60,666 nucleotides of DNA from Chrysophaeum taylorii (Eukaryota > Sar > Pelagophyceae > Pelagomonadales > Pelagomonadaceae), in contig JAQMWT010000236.1 of assembly GCA_029834535.1 (NCBI GenBank), positions 1 to 60,666 on the forward strand, in the 5' to 3' direction. The notes under the pieces were generated by a model, which had not been told where the DNA came from, did not search any database, and worked only from the letters and a program-made list of their open reading frames with translations. The position numbers were made by a program, and so were the translations under genes. This document shows positions 1,619 to 27,138 of this stretch, one piece after another (position 1 is the first letter of the stretch; each line of letters opens with the position of its first letter).

Positions 1619-3940
1619 TCATACTGAAGTCGGCAAGCGTACCACCGCTTGTCTATAAGCGGCAACAGTAGGCGAGGCAAAGACGAGTAAGAACATCCTT
1701 GAGATTGGTTTTGCGACGAGGTTGAGGGTGATGAGGACCACGGGTGAGACGTAGGACATCCTGGGAATAGAGAGACCGATAAGATGGTAAAAGTGGCAAC
1801 GTGTTGGAAGACACTTCAGATGTAGGTGTGGTGGCGGAAGTAGCGGGTGCAGAAGCAGCTGGAGCACATGCGGGAGCGGGAGAGGGAGCATGGAGATGAG
1901 AAGAAGGAGTCCCCCTCTCATGGTCAGTGTCGGTAGGCATAGCATTCCCCCTCTGCGCCGCATCATTGGGGTGCTGTGAACAGAGAAGGGAATGTCGGGT
2001 GAAGGTGCGGGAGGTGGATGCTGTTCATAATCAGAAGGAGATTTAGAAATAAGATGAGGAAAAGTCAGTTTAGAGGAAACACGGACTTGGCCGTTTTCGG
2101 GATTAAGGACAACATCGGCTAAATGATTAACATGGGGTGTTACTAAAGGGTTTATAACGTTAGCACCACATAAGTAGATGTAGGGACGACATCGGGGTTC
2201 ATATTTATGAAATTCGTTAGGTTCCAAATGCAGATAACAAACAGAACCAAAAGGTTTGAGGTAGTCCTGTTGGGGAACATTACATTGGTCTAACAAAACT
2301 TGTTGGGGGCTTAGGACTTTATTGTAAATACGTTCGAGGGAAACGTTAGGGACGAGATTATACGATTGGATGGCATGTATAACAGCCCACGGGTAGTGTG
2401 TGGTGCCGGATCTGTTAAGGGGTGACCTTTATAGGATACAATAAGCATATGCCGGAGTCGTGTAGACGCGGCAGTGGCTATGTGACCAACAGCGGCTTCT
2501 ACTTCATGATTAAAGACGTGTAAGTAAGGGGGGAACGCGGACATGTTAATACCATGTTCCACACGAAAGGGGGTTGTTACATGCTGAGATAAATAGGGTT
2601 TAAAGGAATCACAATAGATTTGTTTGAGTTGTACATGAACATAAGTAGAGCAAAAATTGCGGACAAACTCAAGGGCGTTAGATAATTCACTGGAGTTAGT
2701 GCTACGACAAAAGTACACTAGCAAAAATTTAGAAATGAGACACTTAAAAACAATGATGTGTCGAAAGGATCCCCATTCAGAGAGAACGGATACGCAACCA
2801 CCGTTACATGCCCAGGCTTCACCAGGTTGAAAAATTTTTTCGAATGATGGTTGCTTGGTAAGGTGATGTGGATGAGGAAAGCGTTTTTTATGAATCGTAC
2901 AATCCACACAGAACTTACGGTAGGGTACGTCAGATGGGTGGTGTCCAGGACTGGCAATAACCCGAACAGCTTTTATAGCTTGAGAATCACTAGAATGGTG
3001 GATGTTGTGAAAATTGGTGGCTCGTTGTTGCGCATCTCGAAATGCAAGGGCGCCCCTGGCATGAACTTTCTTATCGAAGGGCGCATGCTTCTCATGGAGC
3101 TGTCTTGGCGTTATAAGAGGAATTTGTTTTTCTTTAGTAGGAGATGATATATCTGCGGATGAGGTGTTAGAGAGGAAGACATGAGCTACTGAATCGAGAT
3201 GAAAAGATGGAAGTTCGTGGTTAGAAGCAAGATTATCACAACATGTGAGTTTTTTATTGGAGATGTAGAACATTGTAATGGAACTCTGGTGTAATAATAA
3301 AGATGTATCTGTTGGGAATATATTTGTGAAGAAGGTTGACCTATAGTTTTTGGTTAGAGAGGCATGATCAGGGTCAAACGATGGTGATAGCGTTAATTTA
3401 CGCAAGTCATAGACAAGCTGACACAAATGTTTATAAATTATATGATATGTTCCAGCTGGAATAGCATTAGCGATTATGTCACAGCATAGGTCCGGGGACA
3501 AAGACAAAAGAAAATTGATTTGGTACGCTGTGAAGTTATTGGCGCGTGCCAATTCGCGAGTTGAGTAGTGTCGAATGCGATCGAGTCGTGGATCGTACAC
3601 GAGCATGTTAGCAAATCCACGAAAGGTAGGAGTAGGAGTGTATATAGAATGAACTTTGGCACCCATCTTCCTATCGCTTGATGTAATAAAGCCCAGATAT
3701 CTGCTTTGGGGCAGATGCATGTCACTTAAAGCAAACATTTTATCGATAAATTCGAGACGATTTTCCTGAGGGTAGAAGACAAAAGAATCGTGAAATACAG
3801 GAGAAGTACAGGTGACCAGTGCTAGTACTAAACGACGCGTGTCTTGATTTTCATCATTATGATGGTATGCTTGGCAAAGCCAAAGAAAACCAGTAACAGG
3901 TTCGAGAGAAGCAGCCTTATCAATTCCGGGCTAGAAACTG
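1619..3940 (-). pseudogene. Copia integrase with C-terminal domain, frameshifted
   Basis: An open frame from about 3.9 kb through 3738-2311 contains the HHCC zinc-finger region (paired His in NIHH and PGHH, then FCVDC) followed by a DDE-type core. The first acidic position is occupied by Asn (WACNGG) where copia integrases carry Asp. The second Asp (IYCDS) and the Glu (FNHEVEA) are present. At about 2.31 kb the frame ends, but an adjacent frame (2296-1619) continues with the usual copia integrase C-terminal sequence: LLDQCNVP, then YLKPFGSVCYLHL and PYIYLCG. This is a clear frameshift rather than a new gene. Loss of the first catalytic Asp plus the frameshift makes activity unlikely. The remaining sequence to about 0.9 kb is a poorly conserved linker before the reverse transcriptase. 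Confidence 0.75.
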
Positions 3941-5068
3941 TTATGTCTCCGCCTGTATGTCTTCCACCGGTGATGTAAATGATGGAGGAAGTAGAGGATT
4001 TATTAAAAATAACCTGTGAGATGGTTGGTTAGATTCGATAGTTGTAATACTAAAGGACACAGGTAATGTGATAGATTTAGGGAATAAGCGTCCCATAGTA
4101 TTATAGAGGAGCACGAAAGCCTTGAGTTCAATAGGGGATCTCATGCAAGCAAGTGGTTTTATTGAATTAGTCAAGAATCCCTGGCGAAAGTTGGAAATGC
4201 CCTCCATTTCATCTTGACTAGGATGTTCGACTGTTTTATTAGAGTGCAGACGAAGGAACAGCATAGTTAAGGTTTCAAGCTCGGTCACAGTTAAGCGCAC
4301 GGATCCTGTACGACAAAAAATGTTGTGGGTTTTAGGTGTGGACACGAGTGGTATGTCGGGAAAGACCTGCGTCCAAGGTTCGTCGACTATTAACTTGCGA
4401 CTGATGGAATTAGCGTGGTCTGCAATGTCCAGAAAGGAAGTGACTCGTTTGTTAGGCCAGGAAAGCAGATCAAGATGGCCGGTGTTATATTTGCGTGCAA
4501 CGAGGATCCATCTTTCTCTGGCTTGATAATCTCCACACAGATAGCATGGAAATCGGTCACATATATCCACCGTATAGTGCATCGTTGAGAAGATGCGATT
4601 AGCAACTCGCATGTGGTCTTCATACGATGCGGGGTGTGGTGGTGTCATTTCCATGAAAAGAACAAGCGGCTTTAAAAGCTCAAGTACACTTAGAGCACTT
4701 GGAAACAAGGAAACATCCATATCACGCTCGAAGGTGGAAATGGATCTCCCATTGACTATGTTGCGACTTGTGCATGGTGATGTCAGTTCCACTATATCGG
4801 TGTAATATCGTGCACGTTCAGCGTCCGATGCTCGATGGAGATATGTCAGAAACTTGGGTAGGGATGGGAAAACTTCGATGGAATTACCAAAACGTCTTCG
4901 TAGCATGTGCGTGAGATTGTCGTCGCTCTCAACAAGAACTTTAACGTTGATGTTGATTTGCAAGTCATTAGAAGCGCAAGCCAAGAAGGCAGGAGTGGAC
5001 ATCCCAGAGCAAAGTAGAGTTACAGTAGGTGTTCGTGGGCTAGGAGACGAAGTTACTGTGTGAAGCAA
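3941..5068 (-). CDS. C5 cytosine-DNA-methyltransferase-like domain embedded in the copia polyprotein
   Basis: This 375-residue open frame lies between protease and integrase. It shows the ordered motifs of C5-methyltransferases: a motif I-like strand and glycine turn (VTLLCSGMS, residues 16-24), an acidic SAM-ribose position (LVESDD, 45-50), motif IV with the catalytic cysteine (DIVELTSPC, Cys99), a motif VI-like MEM with Glu140 in place of ENV, and motif VIII (YQARER, Gln182/Arg184/Arg186). A motif IX-like segment (RLTVTELETL) follows a variable stretch that could be the target-recognition region. Motif X is weak. The domain has no stop inside it, unlike its integrase and RT neighbours. Retrotransposon-borne DNA methyltransferases are known from dinoflagellates and charophyte algae; self-methylation of the element is the role proposed there. 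The assignment rests on motif spacing read by eye. Confidence 0.68.
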   Translation of the reverse strand: MLHTVTSSPSPRTPTVTLLCSGMSTPAFLACASNDLQININVKVLVESDDNLTHMLRRRFGNSIEVFPSLPKFLTYLHRASDAERARYYTDIVELTSPCTSRNIVNGRSISTFERDMDVSLFPSALSVLELLKPLVLFMEMTPPHPASYEDHMRVANRIFSTMHYTVDICDRFPCYLCGDYQARERWILVARKYNTGHLDLLSWPNKRVTSFLDIADHANSISRKLIVDEPWTQVFPDIPLVSTPKTHNIFCRTGSVRLTVTELETLTMLFLRLHSNKTVEHPSQDEMEGISNFRQGFLTNSIKPLACMRSPIELKAFVLLYNTMGRLFPKSITLPVSFSITTIESNQPSHRLFLINPLLPPSFTSPVEDIQAET

Positions 5069-5086
5069 ACGTGTGGTAACCTTGCG

Positions 5087-5749
5087 TCATACGGGAGGTG
5101 GGAAATGCTTGCGTATGTAAGGCAGCTGCGAATGCATTGACTCCAGGATGGTTTTAAGCCATGGGACGTAAATTACGCGTTCCATGAGGGTGGAATATAG
5201 TTTAAGCATTTCGCGTTGTTCATTAAAAGCACATAGTCTGAACTGTAGTGAGCGAAGTTCCATTTTACGCGCCTTTGCTTGTTGTAGCGAATAAATTGGT
5301 AGAGTAGGCAACAGGTTATTAAGCCTAAACAAAGTAATCTTGACATTATCATCAATTTTACTCTGGATAGATGATTGTCCTTTAAATTCAACACCATAAA
5401 GATGTATACCAAATTTATCTTCTCCCCATTGAGTCATACTGATGATGTGCAGATCGGGATCGTTATGGTCGTTTTGCTTGGGTAGGAAAAGCGCAACGTC
5501 TAGCTTTAAATATCCCACATTTGGATGCTTTGGGAGAGCGGGAATGACAGTCCTTATAATCATAGCATGTGTGATACTCTGCGTATCCGTAGCAGTCTGG
5601 ATAACAGGTGATAAGGACTCGGGTAGCTTTACGACGTGGATAGGATCAGCATAACGTTTAAAGTTAATTACATGTTGAGAAGCACAAGTGTCAGCATATC
5701 CTGGCGTAGTCATTAGCGGCAAATTGTACTCGTTGTACAGTTTAAGCAT
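5087..5749 (-). pseudogene. Retropepsin-like protease region of the copia element
   Basis: Near the start of this 220-residue frame is ADTCASQHV (about residues 19-27). This matches the copia-type aspartic protease signature D-S/T-G-A-S-x-H except that the glycine is replaced by cysteine. It lies directly downstream of the gag region and upstream of the methyltransferase frame, as expected for the protease in a copia polyprotein. The rest of the frame has no other motif I can name. The Gly-to-Cys change in the flap-side signature may reduce activity. The frame stops 18 nt before the first Met of the methyltransferase frame, so in the intact element the two parts were probably continuous. Confidence 0.55.
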
Positions 5750-5982
5750 TGTTGCATAACAGGCATGTGTTCAGCTTTGACCAAACACGCACTGTGTCAT
5801 GAGACGTTGCGTTTGTTCGGAAGGCACAACGACGAGTGTAAAACCTGTGTTTAATTTTGGTAGCAACACAGGGGGATCTGTACCATCTTCATTATCTTCG
5901 TTGGGTAGATTATTGGGGAGCTCAGAGTGCGAGGAAGTTTTCCGAGCTTGACGACGAACGATAGCATTCTGAGCTTTAGCAC

Positions 5983-7332
5983 TTATGTGCTGCAATAGCG
6001 GCTGAGGGATGTTATCGATTTCATCATCTTTAATGGACAGAAAGGTGTGGAACATTTTCTCTGTATCAGCAGCCCCCCTCTGCTCCGCATCACTGGGGGG
6101 CGCTTCAGGAGCAGATGTTTCAGTTTGATACTTTTCTTCTTATCGGTTTCTAAGAGGTTCACAATGGTATTGGACATAGTATCAACTCGAGATAAGTAGA
6201 GAAGAACTTGGGTGGCTTCGTCAGGATCTAAGGACTGTGTCGAAGCTTGAGAAGCGGTTGTCCAGAGGGTACTCAGCAAGCTTTTCATTTCCTCCTGTAC
6301 CATTTTAGAGTCGGTAGAGGGGTTGGGATTCGCTTTCTGTAATTTACCAAACAGGTGGCGAAGACGATCAACTTGATAAGTAGCCCGGTCCATAAGAGAC
6401 ATATTAGAGCGTGCATTACGGTTAGAGGAGGGTGAGTAGACAGGACGATCAAAGCTGGTACCTTTGACGTTATAATTTGAAGGTGGACGATAGTACGACG
6501 TGTCACGAGGTAAAATTGTCGATGCTTTATCTTTTGCATTACGAAGCTTACGAGCGTTGAAGCCAGACTGTCCAGCTACAGTAGCTAACAACGAGTAAGC
6601 GTTGTTTAGAGAGTCGTGGGATTGATGAATAGTATCCATCAATAATACCTTAGGTGGTTTGGTAGCGGTGGTACCAGGGATGTAAGGGATCCAGGAAGCG
6701 GGTTTATCCAAGCGTCGGAAAAAGGAAAACTTTGTTTCATTGTATATCTTTAGCAAGAACTCCAATAACGGACGAACGTCGTTAGGATCAACTAGCTTTA
6801 ACAATTCAGGATCGTGAATCGAGTTGTTCCCAGAGCGTGTCTCGTAGAGTTTACACCATTCCAATAAAGATTGAGAATAGCGCTCGTGATCCGAGGGATT
6901 AGCATATAGACGGTAAATCTCCTCGTGAGCTTTAAGAGTGATTATGGAGTTATTAAATTGGATTGATGCTTCATCATTATTTAATTGCTTTGCCTGAGAT
7001 TGGAAAGCAAGGAGTTGTTCGACAAATACATGGACATACCAATTAACATTTAAAGACATTCGATTAAACTGAGATTTAAGCTCAGTAACATCTGTACAAG
7101 ACACTGTCTCATAATAATGGTAAGCTAAAAGCTTTACTGCACGTAGTTTATTAGGATGTGCAGTAAGTGCATATATCTTCTTTAATTGAGGCCACATAGC
7201 GAGTGCGGGTTTGTCTTGTGATTCCAGATTAAAAAATGTGTACAAGAAACCAGCATAAGCTTCGCAGTGTTTGATCCAGTCGGTATTAGATGGACCTGTA
7301 AAGGATATGTTAGTTAGAGATGAATCATACAC
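5983..7332 (-). CDS. Gag-like protein of the copia element
   Basis: This is a 449-residue open frame at the 5' (right) side of the element, rich in Leu, Asn, Ser and Tyr and without recognisable enzyme motifs. It includes a long helical part (residues about 20-220), a basic Ser/Arg/Tyr-rich stretch (about 250-330) that may bind RNA, and a final segment running into another frame. I see no CCHC zinc knuckle. A shorter open frame at 7814-7539 in the same orientation probably represents the true N-terminus, separated by a frame change at about 7.3-7.5 kb. Identification as Gag comes from position upstream of the protease and from composition, not from a recognised motif. Confidence 0.5.
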   Translation of the reverse strand: MYDSSLTNISFTGPSNTDWIKHCEAYAGFLYTFFNLESQDKPALAMWPQLKKIYALTAHPNKLRAVKLLAYHYYETVSCTDVTELKSQFNRMSLNVNWYVHVFVEQLLAFQSQAKQLNNDEASIQFNNSIITLKAHEEIYRLYANPSDHERYSQSLLEWCKLYETRSGNNSIHDPELLKLVDPNDVRPLLEFLLKIYNETKFSFFRRLDKPASWIPYIPGTTATKPPKVLLMDTIHQSHDSLNNAYSLLATVAGQSGFNARKLRNAKDKASTILPRDTSYYRPPSNYNVKGTSFDRPVYSPSSNRNARSNMSLMDRATYQVDRLRHLFGKLQKANPNPSTDSKMVQEEMKSLLSTLWTTASQASTQSLDPDEATQVLLYLSRVDTMSNTIVNLLETDKKKSIKLKHLLLKRPPVMRSRGGLLIQRKCSTPFCPLKMMKSITSLSRYCST

Positions 7333-7819
7333 AATTGATTTAGGGAATCGGGTATCTAATAGATTGAGGACACGTTTAACATCCTCATTTAATTCGGGAC
7401 GAACGAGATTGTATGACTCTTGGTAAAAAAGTCGTTCGAGATTATTACGAACATCAACTGTTAGTTGATGTGATGAGTTGACGTGCCAAGTTTTAAGAAG
7501 ATCAGGTAGGGCATCTTCATCAGGTAAGTTTAAATCGCTTACTTGTTCAGCTTTCCATTGAGTGAAGTTGATATCAGCTTCTTGTTCAAGAAGTTGGTTA
7601 TACTCCGGAGCATTCCGGGTGTAAGCTTCATATGAATCTCGAAGCAGAATAACGCGTCCACGTATGGACTTGTCATATGCCTGCGAAGCACCTCAATTTG
7701 CAAGCTCACCTTGGTTGAGTTGTCTTGCAAACGCAATCCTGCGTTAATTTCATCAACGAGGATTTGTTCTTGTTTGTAGATATCCGTAGTGGATATTGGT
7801 TTTTGTTTTGACATGGTTG

Positions 7820-8535
7820 TGACCTATTAAGGAATAGGTTATAGGATTGATAGACATATTCGACACGTAAGAATGAAGGGTTTCTCGAGTGCCCGGGTTA
7901 TATGTACAGTACGCTGTTTTAAGCGTGGGCTTATTTACAAGACCAAACAAATCAACATGCTATTTAAAAACAGGATGACTTGAGACTGAAGAATGGATTA
8001 ATTCTCGAGCAGTCAGTCTTTTGTTGGGGAATAGAAGGAAAAACCCGTACAAGTTTCCGCGGCTTGTGTAGGAAAAAATTTAATTTTATTGGCTATGCGA
8101 GTGCATATGACCAGTGACCGACCCAACTCGGTCACAAACCAAATTAACTGATGGGCACATACCGTCACACAACAAATATGTACAGTAGACCACCGCCAAA
8201 CACATTGTCGCATTGTACTCGTGATCAGGCGCAAATTGATCACTCCATTTATACGTACAACACAGTTGGGCTGACACACCTACGCATCTGGGCCCATAAC
8301 CTGGAGAGATTTGACCCTCTCCGGGTGCATGGTAGAGACTGCGTGCAGTCTTAGGCGTGTACAGACTATTCCGCTTGTCACATGCTACTACACAAGGTAG
8401 GGATTTAAGCCCTAACTCCTTAAGAACATTAGTCCCATAGAAGCGTTTACACTGACAACGAAAAACGAAGCCTCTGTTAATTAAACAGAAAGCCCCGTAC
8501 CTGACGGTACGCACCTGGAGGCCTACTCCATGTTG
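7820..8535 (-). other. Leader and putative 5' LTR of the copia element
   Basis: No convincing coding sequence is present. Reading the minus strand towards Gag, an AATAAA-type signal lies near 8.08 kb, followed at 8022-8027 by the minus-strand sequence CCAACA, a plausible LTR 3' end of the TG...CA type. I could not find a matching TGTTGG at the right-hand end, and the 3' LTR is outside the window, so the LTR limits remain unproven. Confidence 0.35.
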
Positions 8536-8539
8536 GAAA

Positions 8540-9166
8540 AGAGCTTCAGACAGGGTTCTTCATAGTCACGAAAACATATAATTGCGGAAGGGTAAGGAAG
8601 GAAGGAGGGAAAGCCGTATTACGGAGAGAAAACCCTCTTGTAGAGATAGGTGTGAAATGTTCCAGTGTCGCACACACAATAGTGTAGCTCTCTGGAGGGG
8701 GGGTTGTTCGTAGTTCGGTTTCTTTGAAGGACCAGCCAAGCGGGCGAATTTTAGAGGGTGGGGTATGCAGAACAAACGACGCGCCTTGGGCGGCTCTACG
8801 CGAAGCTAATTGCGAAGATCCAATTCGACCGCGTGTAATAGTTTCTAGTGCACGGCTAAAATCGCCCCGTCAGACGTTAACTAACTATTACCACAGTTTA
8901 TTAGAACTCGACTTATTATTAATAATCGGGACATTTAGATACGAGAAGACCATCGAACAGACGTCCGTGAGGCTGGAAACGGTAGACGTTTTTCTGGAGC
9001 TCAGAGAGCCCATGTTACCCACCGGTAGTCCGGGAACTGCTTCAGGTAGTGCAAAAGGGGCCCGGCTTCAGATTTATGACCCGATGCGGGACCTAGTTTT
9101 ACTTACACGCTCCCTCTCCGAGCTGACGGCAAAATTTTTGTCTTTTTTCTTTTCTTTGGCCCCGGA
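8540..9166. other. Stretch without recognisable genes, right of the copia element
   Basis: Several frames are open for up to about 200 codons, but none has a recognisable motif, and the longest plus-strand frame runs on into the tandem repeat that follows. I see nothing here that I can support as a gene. Confidence 0.4.
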
Positions 9167-9965: not shown

Positions 9966-9974
9966 TCTGATCCT

Positions 9975-10165
9975 GCGCCTTGCGAGTGCGTTCGTCCCCC
10001 CGGCGTAGGTTGGCACCTGTTCGGCTCGCGGGCGGGCCGGGTGGAAGGCGGAAAAACGTTTTTCGCAGCTGGACGGGGTATGGCCGGGGGACGCAGAAGG
10101 ACATGTAAACGACGAGATGGTTGTCAGTCAAATCGCGGTCTCCCACTGTCGCATGGCGACAGCCG
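9975..10165 (+). repeat. Copy of an interspersed repeat shared with 11.8-12.1 kb and 41.4-41.5 kb
   Basis: This segment matches, at high similarity and in the opposite orientation, the blocks near 11.93-12.13 kb and 41.37-41.54 kb. Shared landmarks are GGCGTAGGTTGGCACCTGTT, a GGGCGGGCCGG stretch and GGGTATGGCCGGGGG. Translated, it encodes the common peptide GWHLF-SRAGR...GRGMAGG. It also shares a downstream GTTGTCAGTCA/CGCATGGCGACA segment with the 11.9-kb copy. It lies immediately upstream of the sulfotransferase gene and probably derives from the LINE family described at 50.8-51.6 kb. Confidence 0.65.
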
Positions 10166-11815: not shown

Positions 11816-12303
11816 TCAGACCTCTCCCGAGCATCATGGGAGCCAGGCCGGACCGACAGGAGCCAGTCCGGAATCACGGGCCTGTAGACGAGGAGCGCTG
11901 AAAGGTCGGTCGGCGGAGAGTGACCATCAAGCTTGTCGCCATGCGACGAGGAGACCGCGATGTGACTGACAACCAACTCGTCGATAACCTTCCGTCTTCG
12001 CCCCCCGGCCATACCCCGTCCCACTGCGAACGTTCCGGCTGCCAACCGGCCCGCCCGGGAGGCGAATAGGTGCCAACCTACGCCGGGAGGGCGGATGCCC
12101 TCGCTAGGCTCAGGATTCATGAGGCACCGTCCTCCATCGCAACCACGCGGTCGGCGATCAGGGTAGAGAAAGAAAGAAAGAATCCGAGAAAAAAGTGTGT
12201 GATTTCGTGTACTATACGTAGTGATAACTTGAAGTACCGTTGTTATCGGGAGTAAATTGGCGAAATTACCACAGGGCGGCGGGCGCGCGCGTCCGGCTGA
12301 AAA
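11490..12303 (-). repeat. LINE-family 3' fragment with (AACT)n tail, minus orientation
   Basis: A tandem ACTA/AACT run at about 11790-11815 is the reverse complement of the (AGTT)n-like tail of the LINE at 51.6 kb. Reading the minus strand into it, the last codons encode SVRPGSHDARERSEVS, matching the C-terminal peptides of the copies at 40.4 kb and 51.6 kb. Further right (about 11930-12130) is the GWHLF...GRGMAGG block shared with 10.0 kb and 41.4 kb. The remainder up to the kinase start, and 11490-11780 after the sulfotransferase, shows no gene apart from a short CTG run at about 11513. Confidence 0.65.
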
Positions 12304-21857: not shown

Positions 21858-21937
21858 GATGATGATGATGATGGTGGTCACCAAAGAAAACCCACCAACC
21901 CTTACTTACCCGCGGCGGCGTTCCCAACGCCGCGGCA

Positions 21938-24637
21938 ATGTTTTTCAAGCGCCTCGCCGTTGTGTTCTGCGGCCACCCGCGCTCCTTCTTGGACCCCGAG
22001 ATTCGTCGGAACGTTCTGCGTCTCGGTGTCGGGCCCTTATGCGCCGACGCGACCTGCGACCTGTTCGTCTTGGTGTCTCGCACCGACGCGAGCCTGTTCG
22101 ACGAGACGGCGCCGTCGCGCGTCCGCGCGCGCAACGTGACGGCCGCCGAAATTCGGGGGATGCTCAAAGGGTACCGCGCGACGGTGCGCGATGTTGAAAA
22201 CCCGCCGCCGACGCCCGCGAGGGCAGCAGACTGTCCCTACCCGAGGCCCGCCTCGGCGCTCGGATACGAGCTCGCCAACGCCGCGGCGGCCTTTGCTATG
22301 GTTCGGGAGTCGGATGGAACGTACGACGCGATCGTACGCATGCGGTTCGATGCGGTATGGGTTCGACCAGCGCCGAGCCTCGCTGCCCTCCTTGGAACTA
22401 CCACCAACGAGGTGATAGTCCCGCGCCACCACTTCCCCGTCAACAACCACTTCGCCGTCGTGCCGTTTGACCTCGCGGAGGCCTATTTCGAGGGGCCTCT
22501 CGCGCTCTGGGCGTCGTGCGACGTCGCGTGGGCCCCCGGCAAGATGCTCGACAATCCGGAGGGCCTCTTGTTGAAGAGCCTGCTCGACCGGAACGTCGCG
22601 ATTCGCAGAATCGACCTCTATCTCACCATTTATAGGCCCGGAACGGGGGGCGGCGCCGAATGCGTCCGGCTGCGCGCCTACGGCGGCACCGTCGCCGCCG
22701 AGTGCGCGTGCGGGTTTCCCTCGGTCGACCCGGCCAAACACAGAAGCAACCTACGGGAGGACGCCGGCTTCTTCTACACGTTCGACAACGTATACGGCGA
22801 CGCCGGCAACAAGCTCCAGATCGCGGTGTCGGAGGCTACCTACCGTGACGACGTCCGCCGCGCGTGCGCCGGCTTGGACCCGCCGGATCCGTGCCTCGAG
22901 CACGAGACGGCGCTCGCGCGGGCTTTTGAGGTCCTCGCGGCCTCCCGAGCCCGTCGCAACATCTTGTGGGACGACAGCTTCATCTCTTCCTCCAAGTTCG
23001 CGGGCTTCGCGATCGACACCCTCGACCAATGGAACGCCTGGGTGCGGGACCCCCACCGCTTCTTCAGGGTAAATATCGACGAGCTCGAGACGGAGCTCGA
23101 CTCCTCTGACGAAAAAGAAGACGACTGCTGCGCGCCGCTCGAGGAGACGGTCGTCGTCGACGCCTCTGTATTTCAGCTTCGTTTCACGCCGACGAATGCG
23201 ACCATCGATACCCAAATCCACGCGCTCTGCGCCGCGAGCGACCTCGACGACGCGAACTGCGCATTCTTGTTGTCGCGCGCTCGCGATCGATGGCGCCGAG
23301 AACGACGCGACTGTCCGCCCCCCGCGGGAGACCCCGACGCCTCGTGGCCACCACCACTGCAAGAACAAGAAGAAGAAGAAGAAGAAGAAGAAGAAGAGCA
23401 CACGCACGACGACGGAGGCGCACCAGCTCCTTCTTTTCGCGCGCCGGCGCCGCTCGACTGGCTCGAAGAGGCAGCGCGACGCCGGCCGGCGCCGCCGTCG
23501 AAGACTATGGAACCGCCCGCGTGGACGCCGCCGGCGCGCGGACTCGCGGCCAAGTTGGCCGACGAGGTGACGGCGCCGTGGCGCGGCCGGGGCGTCACTC
23601 GCGACGAGGTCGAGCGAGCCGAAGCCAGCAGCCCGGATTGCGTGCTGCTGCAAGTGATCGACGGCGCCGTCAGAGTCCGCGCGAGCGCCGAGAAGCGCGC
23701 CGCGTGGAACGCGAGCTCTCTCTCGCGGCCGTGGCGCGCCCGTCGACGCCGCGCAGCCGTCGAGCTCGTCGCCTCGGTGGCTACCGCGATCGGCCGAGAC
23801 CTCGAAGTCGCGTTCTGCCCGACCGACTGCGTCGTCGGGAGCACGGGGACGTTTTACCGGCACCACGACGCCCACGTTCACGCCGTGCCCGCGCTCACGT
23901 TGGTTGGGTGCGCCGGCTCGCACAACATTCCGTTTCCGGTGTTTGGAAACGTCCGCGGCGGCGACCTCAACGAAAGCGTCGCCAACTGGGACCGCCTCGC
24001 GACCTCGACGCTTGCGCCGAATCGAGACCGGTACCCACCATGGGTTGACCGCGACCCTCGCGCCATTTTTCGCGGCCAGACCAAAGGCCAGTCGTGTTGG
24101 CGGCGACGAAACGACGAGGGCGTCGGCCCTCAGGTCGCTTCTTTGGATCCCGCGTGCGGCCGCCGCAGACTCCGCGTCGTCGCGTCGCGACGGCCTGACC
24201 GCTTCGACGTCGACTACGACCACGTCCCGCTTCTCGCCCAGGAGAGGTACCGATACCAGATCTACGCGGAGGGCCACTGCGGCTGGTCCGACCGCCTTCG
24301 TTATTTGTTATTTCTCAACGTCGGGCTCTTCTTCCAGGAGACATTTTGCCGCGAATTCTTCGCCCTCGGGCTTCGGCCGTGGGTCCACTACGTTCCGCTC
24401 GACTACCACTTCGACAACCTCGCCGCCGCCCATTCCTGGGCCCAAGAACATCCGCGCGAAATGCAGCGGATCGTCGCCAACATGAACGCCTACGCCGAGG
24501 CGATCCTCTCTGCGGCCGCCATCCGGGCCTACGCGGTCGCCGTTTTGACCGACCTCGCGATCGCCCTCTCCTACACCCCACGCCCGCGCGACGCGACTCT
24601 CGCCGTCCAAGACTATCTAAATCTTGTGGACAAATAA
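21938..24637 (+). CDS. Two-domain glycosyltransferase with CAP10/GT90-type C-terminal half
   Basis: The 899-residue product has two recognisable halves. Residues about 5-270 resemble nucleotide-sugar glycosyltransferases: RLAVVFCGHPRSFLD at the start, then YDAIVRMRFDAVWV, a strand-D-x-x pattern typical of GT-A folds. Residues about 640-890 carry the CAP10/KDELC/POGLUT (GT90) signature: AIFRGQTKGQSC, YRYQIYAEGHCGWSDRLRYLL (about 770-790), FFQETFCREFFALGLRPWVHYVPL and FDNLAAAHSWAQEH. GT90 enzymes transfer xylose or glucose to proteins or polysaccharides. A Glu-rich run (about 480-490, GAA repeat) separates the halves. No clear signal peptide is visible, which is odd for a GT90 enzyme, so an upstream exon may be missing. 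The stop codon is 8 bp before the next ATG. Confidence 0.72.
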   Translation: MFFKRLAVVFCGHPRSFLDPEIRRNVLRLGVGPLCADATCDLFVLVSRTDASLFDETAPSRVRARNVTAAEIRGMLKGYRATVRDVENPPPTPARAADCPYPRPASALGYELANAAAAFAMVRESDGTYDAIVRMRFDAVWVRPAPSLAALLGTTTNEVIVPRHHFPVNNHFAVVPFDLAEAYFEGPLALWASCDVAWAPGKMLDNPEGLLLKSLLDRNVAIRRIDLYLTIYRPGTGGGAECVRLRAYGGTVAAECACGFPSVDPAKHRSNLREDAGFFYTFDNVYGDAGNKLQIAVSEATYRDDVRRACAGLDPPDPCLEHETALARAFEVLAASRARRNILWDDSFISSSKFAGFAIDTLDQWNAWVRDPHRFFRVNIDELETELDSSDEKEDDCCAPLEETVVVDASVFQLRFTPTNATIDTQIHALCAASDLDDANCAFLLSRARDRWRRERRDCPPPAGDPDASWPPPLQEQEEEEEEEEEEHTHDDGGAPAPSFRAPAPLDWLEEAARRRPAPPSKTMEPPAWTPPARGLAAKLADEVTAPWRGRGVTRDEVERAEASSPDCVLLQVIDGAVRVRASAEKRAAWNASSLSRPWRARRRRAAVELVASVATAIGRDLEVAFCPTDCVVGSTGTFYRHHDAHVHAVPALTLVGCAGSHNIPFPVFGNVRGGDLNESVANWDRLATSTLAPNRDRYPPWVDRDPRAIFRGQTKGQSCWRRRNDEGVGPQVASLDPACGRRRLRVVASRRPDRFDVDYDHVPLLAQERYRYQIYAEGHCGWSDRLRYLLFLNVGLFFQETFCREFFALGLRPWVHYVPLDYHFDNLAAAHSWAQEHPREMQRIVANMNAYAEAILSAAAIRAYAVAVLTDLAIALSYTPRPRDATLAVQDYLNLVDK

Positions 24638-24645
24638 ATAGATAG

Positions 24646-26429
24646 ATGGAAGTGCGTCCTGTTGCGGCGGAGATTAATGCCGTGGAGATCTTGAATTGCT
24701 CGGTGCCGGCGCTCTTGGCGTCGCCGGCGCAGCAGGAATGCATCCGCGGTCTCCTCCGCGAGCACGGGTTTTTGTTGATGCGGGGGGTGGCCTCTCTGAG
24801 TCCCGGCGAGGAGGAGGCCTTGATGAAGTTGTTCCCCTACGACGACGTCGCGGCCGTTCGCGATGTGTCGGGGCCGTACCACGCGCCGGGGACGGGTATC
24901 ATCGAAACGGTCCGGAACGGGGTGACCGTCGGGGCGGCGCGGTGGAAAATACCGGCGCATCCGGTAATACAGCTCCAGGGGAACGGCGCCGTAAAGTCGC
25001 ATTACGGCGTCGAAGACGGGTGGCTCGCGTCGCGGTGGGAAACGCGCGAGTGGCACACGGACGGGTGCCACGACGTCCCGGCGTCGACGTGGCCGCCGGT
25101 CGCGACGTCGATGTACTGTTTCGCGACGCCGAGCGAGGCCGGCGAGACGCTCTTCGCGAGCGGGCGGCGTATCCTCGACGCCTTGAGCGAGGATTTGCGG
25201 GACGTCGCGTTGCGGCTCGACGCGGTCTACGACCTCGCGTTGCGACCGATGGAAAAAGACGGCTGCCGGGCGGCCAGGTCGTCCGGGGTTGTTCCCGGAG
25301 AGCTCACCAACCAGTTTCCGATCGTTATTCTCGACCAGAAGAGGAGACCGAGCCTCTACGTCGCGCCCGCTTTCACGCGATATCTCGTCGATGCCGAGAC
25401 GGGCGAACGGTGGACGCCCGAGGCTTCGCAGGCGTTTTTGGGTCGCGTGCTCCGGGCGGGAATGAAGTCTATTTACGCGCACTTCTGGAACCCGAACGAT
25501 TTTGTCGTCTGGGACAATCGCCAGATGGTGCACTCGGCTACGCCGTCGGACCTCTACGAGGGCCAAGCTCGGCTCTTCCACCGCGTCCGCATGTCGTCGC
25601 GCGTCCCGATCGTCGCCGCGCGGCGGAGAGATGAGGGTGGTGACCTTTCGCTCTACTACGAGTGGTTTTGGGCTCTCGAGCAGCTCCTCGCGCGCGGTTC
25701 GATCCTCCTCGGCGGCTCGGCCAGCCTCGCCTCGACGACCGGCGGCGGAGCGCTCGTCTTGCTGCCGCTGCTGCTGCTGCCTCGGAAGAAGAATAACGGT
25801 CTACCTCTTCGCGTTTCCCACGCTCTGAACCTCGTCGTCCGCGCCCGTAAACTACCCGCGGTCTGGGACTACGAGTTCTGGGCGGGGCTGACCGATCTCT
25901 CGGTCCTCGCGGACGCGCTGCCCGCGCTGCGCGCGCAGTGGATCTTCTTGTACTACGCGACGGCCTTCTACAAGCTGACGACGAGCTTCCTTAGTACTTC
26001 GACGAGCTGCGCCCCAATCTTTGTCTTGTCGCTCCTCGACTCGGTCGCGCCCCGAAGAGGTCCTTGTTGTTCTTCTTATGTCTTGCGGTGGCTCAACCGC
26101 CTGTCGGCCCCGGCCACCATCGTCGTCGAGCTCGCAATCCCGACGCTTCTCTGGCTTCGCCCGCCGGCCGGCGTGATCCTCGCGGCCGCATTTCACCAGC
26201 TTATTGCTCTCGCGCCCCCCCCCAACAACGCCGGCGGCTTCAGCGTTGCCGTCGCCGTCCGCTTAACCCTCTTCCTGAAACCTCGAGAAAAAGTGGTTTC
26301 TAAGACAGGAGCTCTTTTTGCTCTCGTCTTCGTCACGCTCGCAACCGAGCTCGCCCACCGCCGCGGCGGCGACTGGCCGCTCGCGGTCGCGACGCTCATG
26401 AATGTCCTTCTCGTCCTAGCGGCACTCTC

Positions 26430-26460
<31 letters not shown>

Positions 26461-26979
26461 TGCACTCGAAAACGACGATTTTGGAATATTAAAAACGGAA
26501 CCCTCCTCGCGCTCGCGTTTGCCTACGTCGCGCTGCCCATCCTGGGCCTCCAAGATATGGGGGCGCCGACGATGTTCGCCAATCTCAGGGTCTACGGCGG
26601 TTCGAACCACGTAATCGCCCCGACGTCACTTCTCGTCCGCCCCAAGCTTCTCCGTCTCGAGGTCTCGACGTCTCGAACCATCAACGAGATCCACCCGAAC
26701 GAGGTCGCGCACTCGAAGCGCCTCACCGCCTGGCTCCGCACCTCGGGTCATTCGGGACGCCAGTTCGCGCCGTACGTCGCGAGGGCCGTGGGCATCACCT
26801 TTTCCCCCAATCGCACCTCCCTCGCGACGCCCCTTCTCCTGCCTGATCTCGAGCTCCGCCGTCTTCTCGCCGAGGCAAATGCCAACGGCGAGACCGACTA
26901 TCTCATCCAGTACACTAAGCTACCCTCGGGCGACCGAGTCTTCTTTGACGCCGCGACCAACACCTGCGTCCTCTCGTCG

Positions 26980-27012
<33 letters not shown>

Positions 27013-27138
27013 TCATCCGAGTGCGCGCCCGACGAGCCGCCCCTCAATCCGGGCCTTCCCTGGTGGCAACGCAAAACTTTGCTCTTCTTCTCCTTCCCCG
27101 TCGACGCCGACGCCCGCGAACTCGGCTGCGTCTCCTGA
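24646..27138 (+). CDS. TauD/TfdA-like Fe(II)/2-oxoglutarate dioxygenase fused to a multi-pass membrane domain
   Basis: Residues 1-325 form a TauD-type dioxygenase: EWHTDGCHD with iron ligands His137 and Asp139, distal ligand His296 in WDNRQMVHSAT, and the 2-oxoglutarate Arg in FHRVRM (about 313). The chemistry expected is hydroxylation coupled to decarboxylation of 2-oxoglutarate; the substrate is unknown. From about 340 to 660 there are six or more hydrophobic helices, including DYEFWAGLTDLSVLADALPA and IFLYYATAFYKLTTSFLSTS. This resembles the HTTM/VKGC-like membrane domain of vitamin K-dependent carboxylase relatives. A soluble tail of about 170 residues follows, including FANLRVYGGSNHV. 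Short poly-Gln and poly-Ser tracts come from CAG and TCA repeats. I know of no standard protein with this arrangement. The ATG lies 8 bp after the glycosyltransferase stop codon. Confidence 0.7.

What the first reader, a model, noticed from the sequence alone, without database searches (positions are those of the whole stretch)
3941..5068. C5 DNA-methyltransferase domain between protease and integrase of a copia retrotransposon
The open frame carries the ordered motif set of a C5-methyltransferase, including the catalytic SPC (Cys99) and the Q-x-R-x-R motif VIII, inside a copia polyprotein. Retroelement-borne DNMTs have been described in dinoflagellates and charophytes. A copy in this alga, inserted between protease and integrase, would be an additional or independent capture. 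This frame has no internal stop although the flanking integrase and RT are broken, hinting at stronger or longer selection on it. An element that methylates its own cDNA could hide from, or regulate, host silencing.
Basis: partly seen in the sequence, partly recalled or inferred. Interest (0 to 1): 0.88.

Follow-up and report, generated by a model that had tools for sequence, protein, structure and literature searches.

The report
Algal copia elements carrying DNA methyltransferase
A family of copy-and-paste mobile elements in an alga carries, inside its replication polyprotein and behind a conserved stop codon, a very divergent enzyme of the kind that methylates cytosine in DNA, which offers a way to ask why mobile elements would mark DNA chemically.

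The parts
3944..5086 (-). C5-methyltransferase-type domain, N-terminal part of the Pol frame of a copia-type element; 381 aa in this copy, ended early by a one-base deletion near codon 362
4772..4777 (-). Motif IV Pro104-Cys105 (candidate catalytic nucleophile)
   Evidence: C105 invariant in the alignment of 25 sequences that includes a DNMT2-like host gene; P104 nearly invariant
4649..4651 (-). Motif VI Glu146 (E-M-T-P-P-H in place of E-N-V)
   Evidence: nearly invariant, invariant in A2
4511..4525 (-). Motif VIII Q188-x-R190-x-R192
   Evidence: invariant in A2; R192 invariant in A4
5087..5089 (-). Conserved in-frame TGA between the gag-protease frame and the methyltransferase-Pol frame (candidate readthrough stop, context TGA-CGC-AAG)
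   Evidence: 33 of 33 copies read; all 100 listed perfect-flank sites of 201 sites genome-wide; family B 71 of 72 perfect-flank sites
5087..5770 (-). Protease region (candidate: motif D-T-C-A-S at 5678-5692; no Pfam hit)
5983..7692 (-). Gag-like frame upstream (by position only; no Pfam hit)
8302..8696 (-). 5' LTR (about 86% identical to the LTR pair found in copy L036)
1619..3930 (-). Integrase region, broken frame; SH3_retrovirus domain at 5.2e-6, 26.7 bits against a cut-off of 27; rve visible weakly in copies L026 and L040
414..1073 (-). RVT_2 (copia-type) reverse transcriptase fragment; the element is cut by the contig end
   Evidence: PF07727 1.7e-20

Best explanation
This is a copy of an LTR retrotransposon of copia type whose Pol polyprotein begins with a divergent C5-cytosine methyltransferase domain: LTR, gag, protease, TGA, methyltransferase, integrase, reverse transcriptase. 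Shown by sequence: the layout in two families, the catalytic residues, purifying selection, near-identical copies, and retention of the TGA. Inferred: gag-protease is made in bulk, a minority of ribosomes read through the leaky UGA-C context, and the methyltransferase is therefore made only as part of Pol and packed into the particle with integrase and RT. Inferred with less certainty: it methylates cytosines of the element's own cDNA (or nearby host DNA) before or at integration, so that new copies arrive already marked, which could moderate host response, lower damage from expression, or protect the cDNA.
Confidence: 0.66

Rival explanations
1. The domain is an RNA m5C methyltransferase (DNMT2-like use of the same fold) that marks the element's genomic RNA or tRNA primer instead of DNA.
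Against: Matches to DNA enzymes are as good or better (ZMET2, DNMT1, HhaI); it sits beside integrase and RT in Pol, where DNA is made.
Confidence: 0.2
2. The MTase-Pol frame is made without readthrough: by a spliced RNA, reinitiation or a separate RNA, and the TGA is simply the end of gag-protease.
For: No RNA structure was found; a stop is needed under this reading too, so TGA conservation does not exclude it. One of two family B copies with upstream sequence has a further stop upstream in that phase (L025).
Against: The two frames are in the same phase with one stop codon between them in 20 of 21 family A copies and in family B copy L056; TGA rather than TAA/TAG is kept; the first ATG of the window's MTase frame lies inside motif I (residue 29).
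Confidence: 0.25
3. The domain is a degenerate methyltransferase kept for DNA or SAM binding, or for a structural role, without catalysis.
For: Divergent motifs I and VI; below Pfam's cut-off.
Against: Catalytic Cys, Glu and QxRxR are kept across families with 48% identity and in transcriptome relatives.
Confidence: 0.12
4. The MTase frame is a host gene caught by chance in a few broken elements.
For: None beyond the single broken copy in the window.
Against: 108 matches, RVT_2 at a steady distance where both were listed, 201 junction sites, strong selection.
Confidence: 0.01

Closest known systems
KnitGypsy-Dnmt3 (Klebsormidium nitens; PMC5890265, part 3 and passages seen)
   Same: LTR retroelement with a C5-MTase inside the Pol frame, intronless, several copies, purifying selection on the MTase (Ka/Ks < 0.2)
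   Different: Gypsy there, copia-type here; theirs came from a PF00145 survey and is placed near Dnmt3, ours is below the Pfam cut-off; the parts seen mention no stop codon before it. Families D/E of this genome are the closer parallel in layout
SymbioDIRS-Dnmt3 and SymbioLINE-Dnmt (Symbiodinium; PMC5890265, parts 1 and 3 and passages seen)
   Same: Retroelement-borne C5-MTases in hundreds of copies; SymbioDIRS-Dnmt3 domains methylate CG de novo in yeast
   Different: DIRS and LINE carriers; this genome has no tyrosine-recombinase match (PF00589). The same paper says Symbiodinium Copia elements lack any DNMT domain
Gag-pol readthrough of gammaretroviruses and UGA-C readthrough of some RNA viruses (recalled, no call)
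   Same: One in-frame stop between an upstream Gag unit and Pol, same phase
   Different: Here the protease lies before the stop and the first domain after it is a methyltransferase; no downstream RNA structure detected
DNMT1/CMT (ZMET2)/DNMT2/HhaI fold group
   Same: Predicted fold and catalytic residues
   Different: Very low sequence similarity, no accessory domains found, unresolved target-recognition region

Membership tests
C5-cytosine methyltransferase (PF00145) | Catalytic PC motif (IV), Glu of motif VI, QxRxR (VIII) in order | tested here: met
C5-cytosine methyltransferase (PF00145) | Pfam score over the curated cut-off for the window's frame | tested here: not met
   family B member 13.1 bits against 22; relatives P0002 20.2 and P0003 41.8 bits
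C5-cytosine methyltransferase (PF00145) | Rossmann-like class I fold closest to C5-MTases | tested here: met
   model of moderate confidence, from an alignment that includes recognised DNMTs
C5-cytosine methyltransferase (PF00145) | Canonical motif I (FxGxG) and ENV of motif VI (motifs recalled) | tested here: not met
   LLCSGMS and EMTPPH instead
C5-cytosine methyltransferase (PF00145) | 5mC activity on DNA | not testable with these tools
   needs expression and bisulfite or nanopore data
Ty1/copia LTR retrotransposon | RVT_2 reverse transcriptase | tested here: met
   1.7e-20; 1.9e-42 in L027
Ty1/copia LTR retrotransposon | Integrase encoded before RT | tested here: met
   L026: rve 778-874 (E 0.011), SH3 962-996, RVT_2 from 1419 (E 0.0069) in one frame; each score is below its cut-off in that copy
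Ty1/copia LTR retrotransposon | Paired LTRs with target-site duplication | tested here: inconclusive
   the LTR of L036 matches in 17 of 21 held sequences, L036 included, 15 on the same strand and 2 reversed (L021, L038); one pair seen (L036, 91%) without a duplication; 3' ends of most others lie outside the DNA held
DIRS element | Tyrosine recombinase | tested here: not met
   no PF00589 match in the genome at E<=0.1
Programmed stop-codon readthrough | Conserved single in-frame stop in a leaky context | tested here: met
   that UGA-C is leaky is recalled
Programmed stop-codon readthrough | Stimulatory RNA structure downstream | tested here: inconclusive
   0 of 48 predicted pairs covary; z -0.8 to +0.5 in four copies
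Programmed stop-codon readthrough | Fusion protein made | not testable with these tools
   needs a reporter or proteomics

The most novel reading that the evidence does not exclude
In one alga, LTR retroelements of both superfamilies carry unrelated lineages of C5-methyltransferase: copia-type elements (families A, B) with a methyltransferase read through a conserved UGA at the head of Pol, and gypsy-order elements (families D, E) with another before RT. Arming retroelements with a cytosine methyltransferase would then be a repeated, selected strategy within a single genome and not a rare accident.
Probability: 0.62. Interest if true: 0.76.

Novelty: new variant of a known kind. Interest (0 to 1): 0.68.

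Why it matters
Cytosine methylation usually silences mobile elements, so elements that bring their own methyltransferase are a puzzle. This adds a carrier type (copia) beside the LINE, DIRS and gypsy carriers of the 2018 paper, shows the domain under selection in elements with near-identical copies, and suggests that its dose is tied to Pol by a stop codon. One genome with two methyltransferase lineages in two element types allows a direct comparison: are these elements methylated, in which context, and before or after integration?

Full report
What is there. The window is one whole contig (C236) of a 70.8-Mb assembly. The host is an alga: 63 light-harvesting-protein matches at E<=1e-15; its name is not known to me. 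On the minus strand the element runs from a 5' LTR (8302-8696) through a gag-like frame (5983-7692), a protease region (5087-5770, motif D-T-C-A-S), a TGA (5087-5089), the methyltransferase frame (3944-5086), a broken integrase region with an SH3_retrovirus domain (5.2e-6, just under the cut-off) and an RVT_2 fragment (1.7e-20), and is then cut by the contig end. Gag and protease frames carry no Pfam hit in the window or in L027 and L040, so they are named by position and motif.

The carrier. Integrase (rve, E 0.011), SH3 and the start of RVT_2 lie in that order in one 1464-aa frame of copy L026, the copia order; L027 gives RVT_2 at 1.9e-42. Comparing 108 family A places and 86 of 117 family B places with the 150 listed RVT_2 places, RVT_2 lies downstream on the same strand in 19 of 20 and 28 of 28 pairs within 8 kb; 10 of the A pairs lie at 4.14-4.28 kb and 18 of the B pairs at 4.18-4.30 kb. 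In the family B copy on C42, the MTase and RVT_2 are each reported in a 1691-aa frame, at a distance divisible by three. The MTase frame runs on into the integrase region in 18 of 22 copies examined; the window copy, L002 and L040 each carry a separate one-base deletion near codon 362 and L037 a stop there.

The stop codon. In family A the codon before the methyltransferase frame is TGA, in phase with it, in 20 of 21 copies. The 21st, L039, has the TGA too but a local shift. With 12 further copies the TGA is present in 33 of 33. The stronger one: the 100 listed sites all have perfect flanks, and the same 100 match the TGA version with no mismatch. In family B, 165 sites match; 72 listed ones have perfect flanks and 71 of these have TGA (exception on C10). 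Family B copies read TGA-CTA (L054) or TGA-ATG (L056), in phase with the MTase; L056 is in phase with the upstream frame too, while L025 has another stop upstream and a shift. On a tree of 26 copies fourfold sites changed 1.57 times on average, so three unchanged bases have a chance of about 0.01-0.02 by neutrality. UGA followed by C is a leaky context (recalled). No RNA structure was supported: 0 of 48 predicted pairs covary, z between -0.8 and +0.5 in four copies. I read this as readthrough that ties the methyltransferase to Pol; splicing or reinitiation stay possible.

Selection. Pairwise median dN/dS with domain borders set by me (4 of 33 loci gave no data): MTase 0.089, 0.075, 0.077 for low, middle and high dS; protease region 0.115, 0.071, 0.054; integrase region 0.201, 0.137, 0.090; RT region 0.296, 0.247, 0.143; gag 0.242, 0.146, 0.096. 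Between subfamilies: protease 0.033, MTase 0.058, integrase and gag 0.078, RT 0.125. The MTase is thus as constrained as a working Pol domain, more than RT and less than the protease region at depth. Fewer stops and frameshifts in the MTase are no evidence, because copies were found by it. Copies L029 and L030 differ by 0.18% over protease and MTase, so activity seems recent.

Other methyltransferase elements in the same genome. PF00145 gives 124 matches at E<=1. Seventeen small stretches were read, four of them family B. L041 is a DNMT2-like gene (PF00145 4.1e-19; the DNMT2 label is my reading) and L042 another DNMT in a 2086-aa frame. Family C (L043-L046) is a distant relative of A and B: an AB profile finds it at 7.8e-13 in a tiny set, and hhalign aligns it through the C-terminal part with P 0.0042 but probability 8% only. 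Its carrier is unknown. Families D and E (L047-L053) are 38% identical to each other and not detectably related to A-C. RVT_1 lies downstream in 13 of 14 pairs within 8 kb, ten of them at 1628-1712 bases, and rve downstream in 15 of 16 pairs, 13 of them at 3385-3564 bases. RT before integrase is gypsy order, and the genome has no tyrosine recombinase match. The RT and rve lists are capped, so these pairs are a part only. The assignment of rows to C or D/E beyond those read rests on the span of the profile matched.

What is known. I saw parts 1 and 3 of 7 and passages of de Mendoza et al. 2018 (PMC5890265), and passages of PMC12344493 and PMC9998398. The 2018 paper describes LINE and DIRS carriers in Symbiodinium and a gypsy carrier in Klebsormidium, de novo CG methylation in yeast by the DIRS-borne domains, Ka/Ks<0.2 for the gypsy-borne one, and states that Symbiodinium Copia lacks a DNMT domain. 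The 2025 paper writes 'LTR Copia and DIRS' while citing the 2018 one, so a copia carrier may already be in print or this may be a slip. I cannot claim priority: three searches returned lists and eight failed. In these listings and passages I saw no description of a copia Pol with a methyltransferase after a UGA.

Verdict. It is a new variant of retroelement-borne DNMTs.

Noticed in passing
G000 families D/E, e.g. L047, L048, L051, L053 (one search list): A second C5-MTase lineage, not detectably related to the first, in elements of gypsy order (MTase, RVT_1 at about +1.66 kb, rve at about +3.55 kb).
   Followed up: partly
L043-L046 (C4, C120, C582, C314): Family C: C5-MTases with PCQ and ENV motifs in open frames, distant relatives of families A/B; carrier unknown.
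   Followed up: partly
L042 (C621:16900-18000): A DNMT with a PF00145 N-terminal half inside a 2086-aa open frame; possible host enzyme or another large element.
   Followed up: no
G000:C696: One contig carries eight listed RVT_1 matches in 565-716-aa frames, perhaps group II intron maturases of an organelle genome.
   Followed up: no
window 24646-27138 and 21872-24637: Adjacent + strand frames with TauD-type dioxygenase (3.2e-30) and glycosyltransferase family 90 (4.9e-25) domains.
   Followed up: no
window 9970-10053 and 12033-12116: Inverted repeat, 84 bases, 85% complementary, 1979 bases apart, with long open frames between the arms.
   Followed up: no
L025:2102-3997: A family B element fragment abuts a family A element, so elements seem to nest in each other.
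   Followed up: no
G000:C88, C539: Arrays of five light-harvesting genes each, with equal or nearly equal scores.
   Followed up: no
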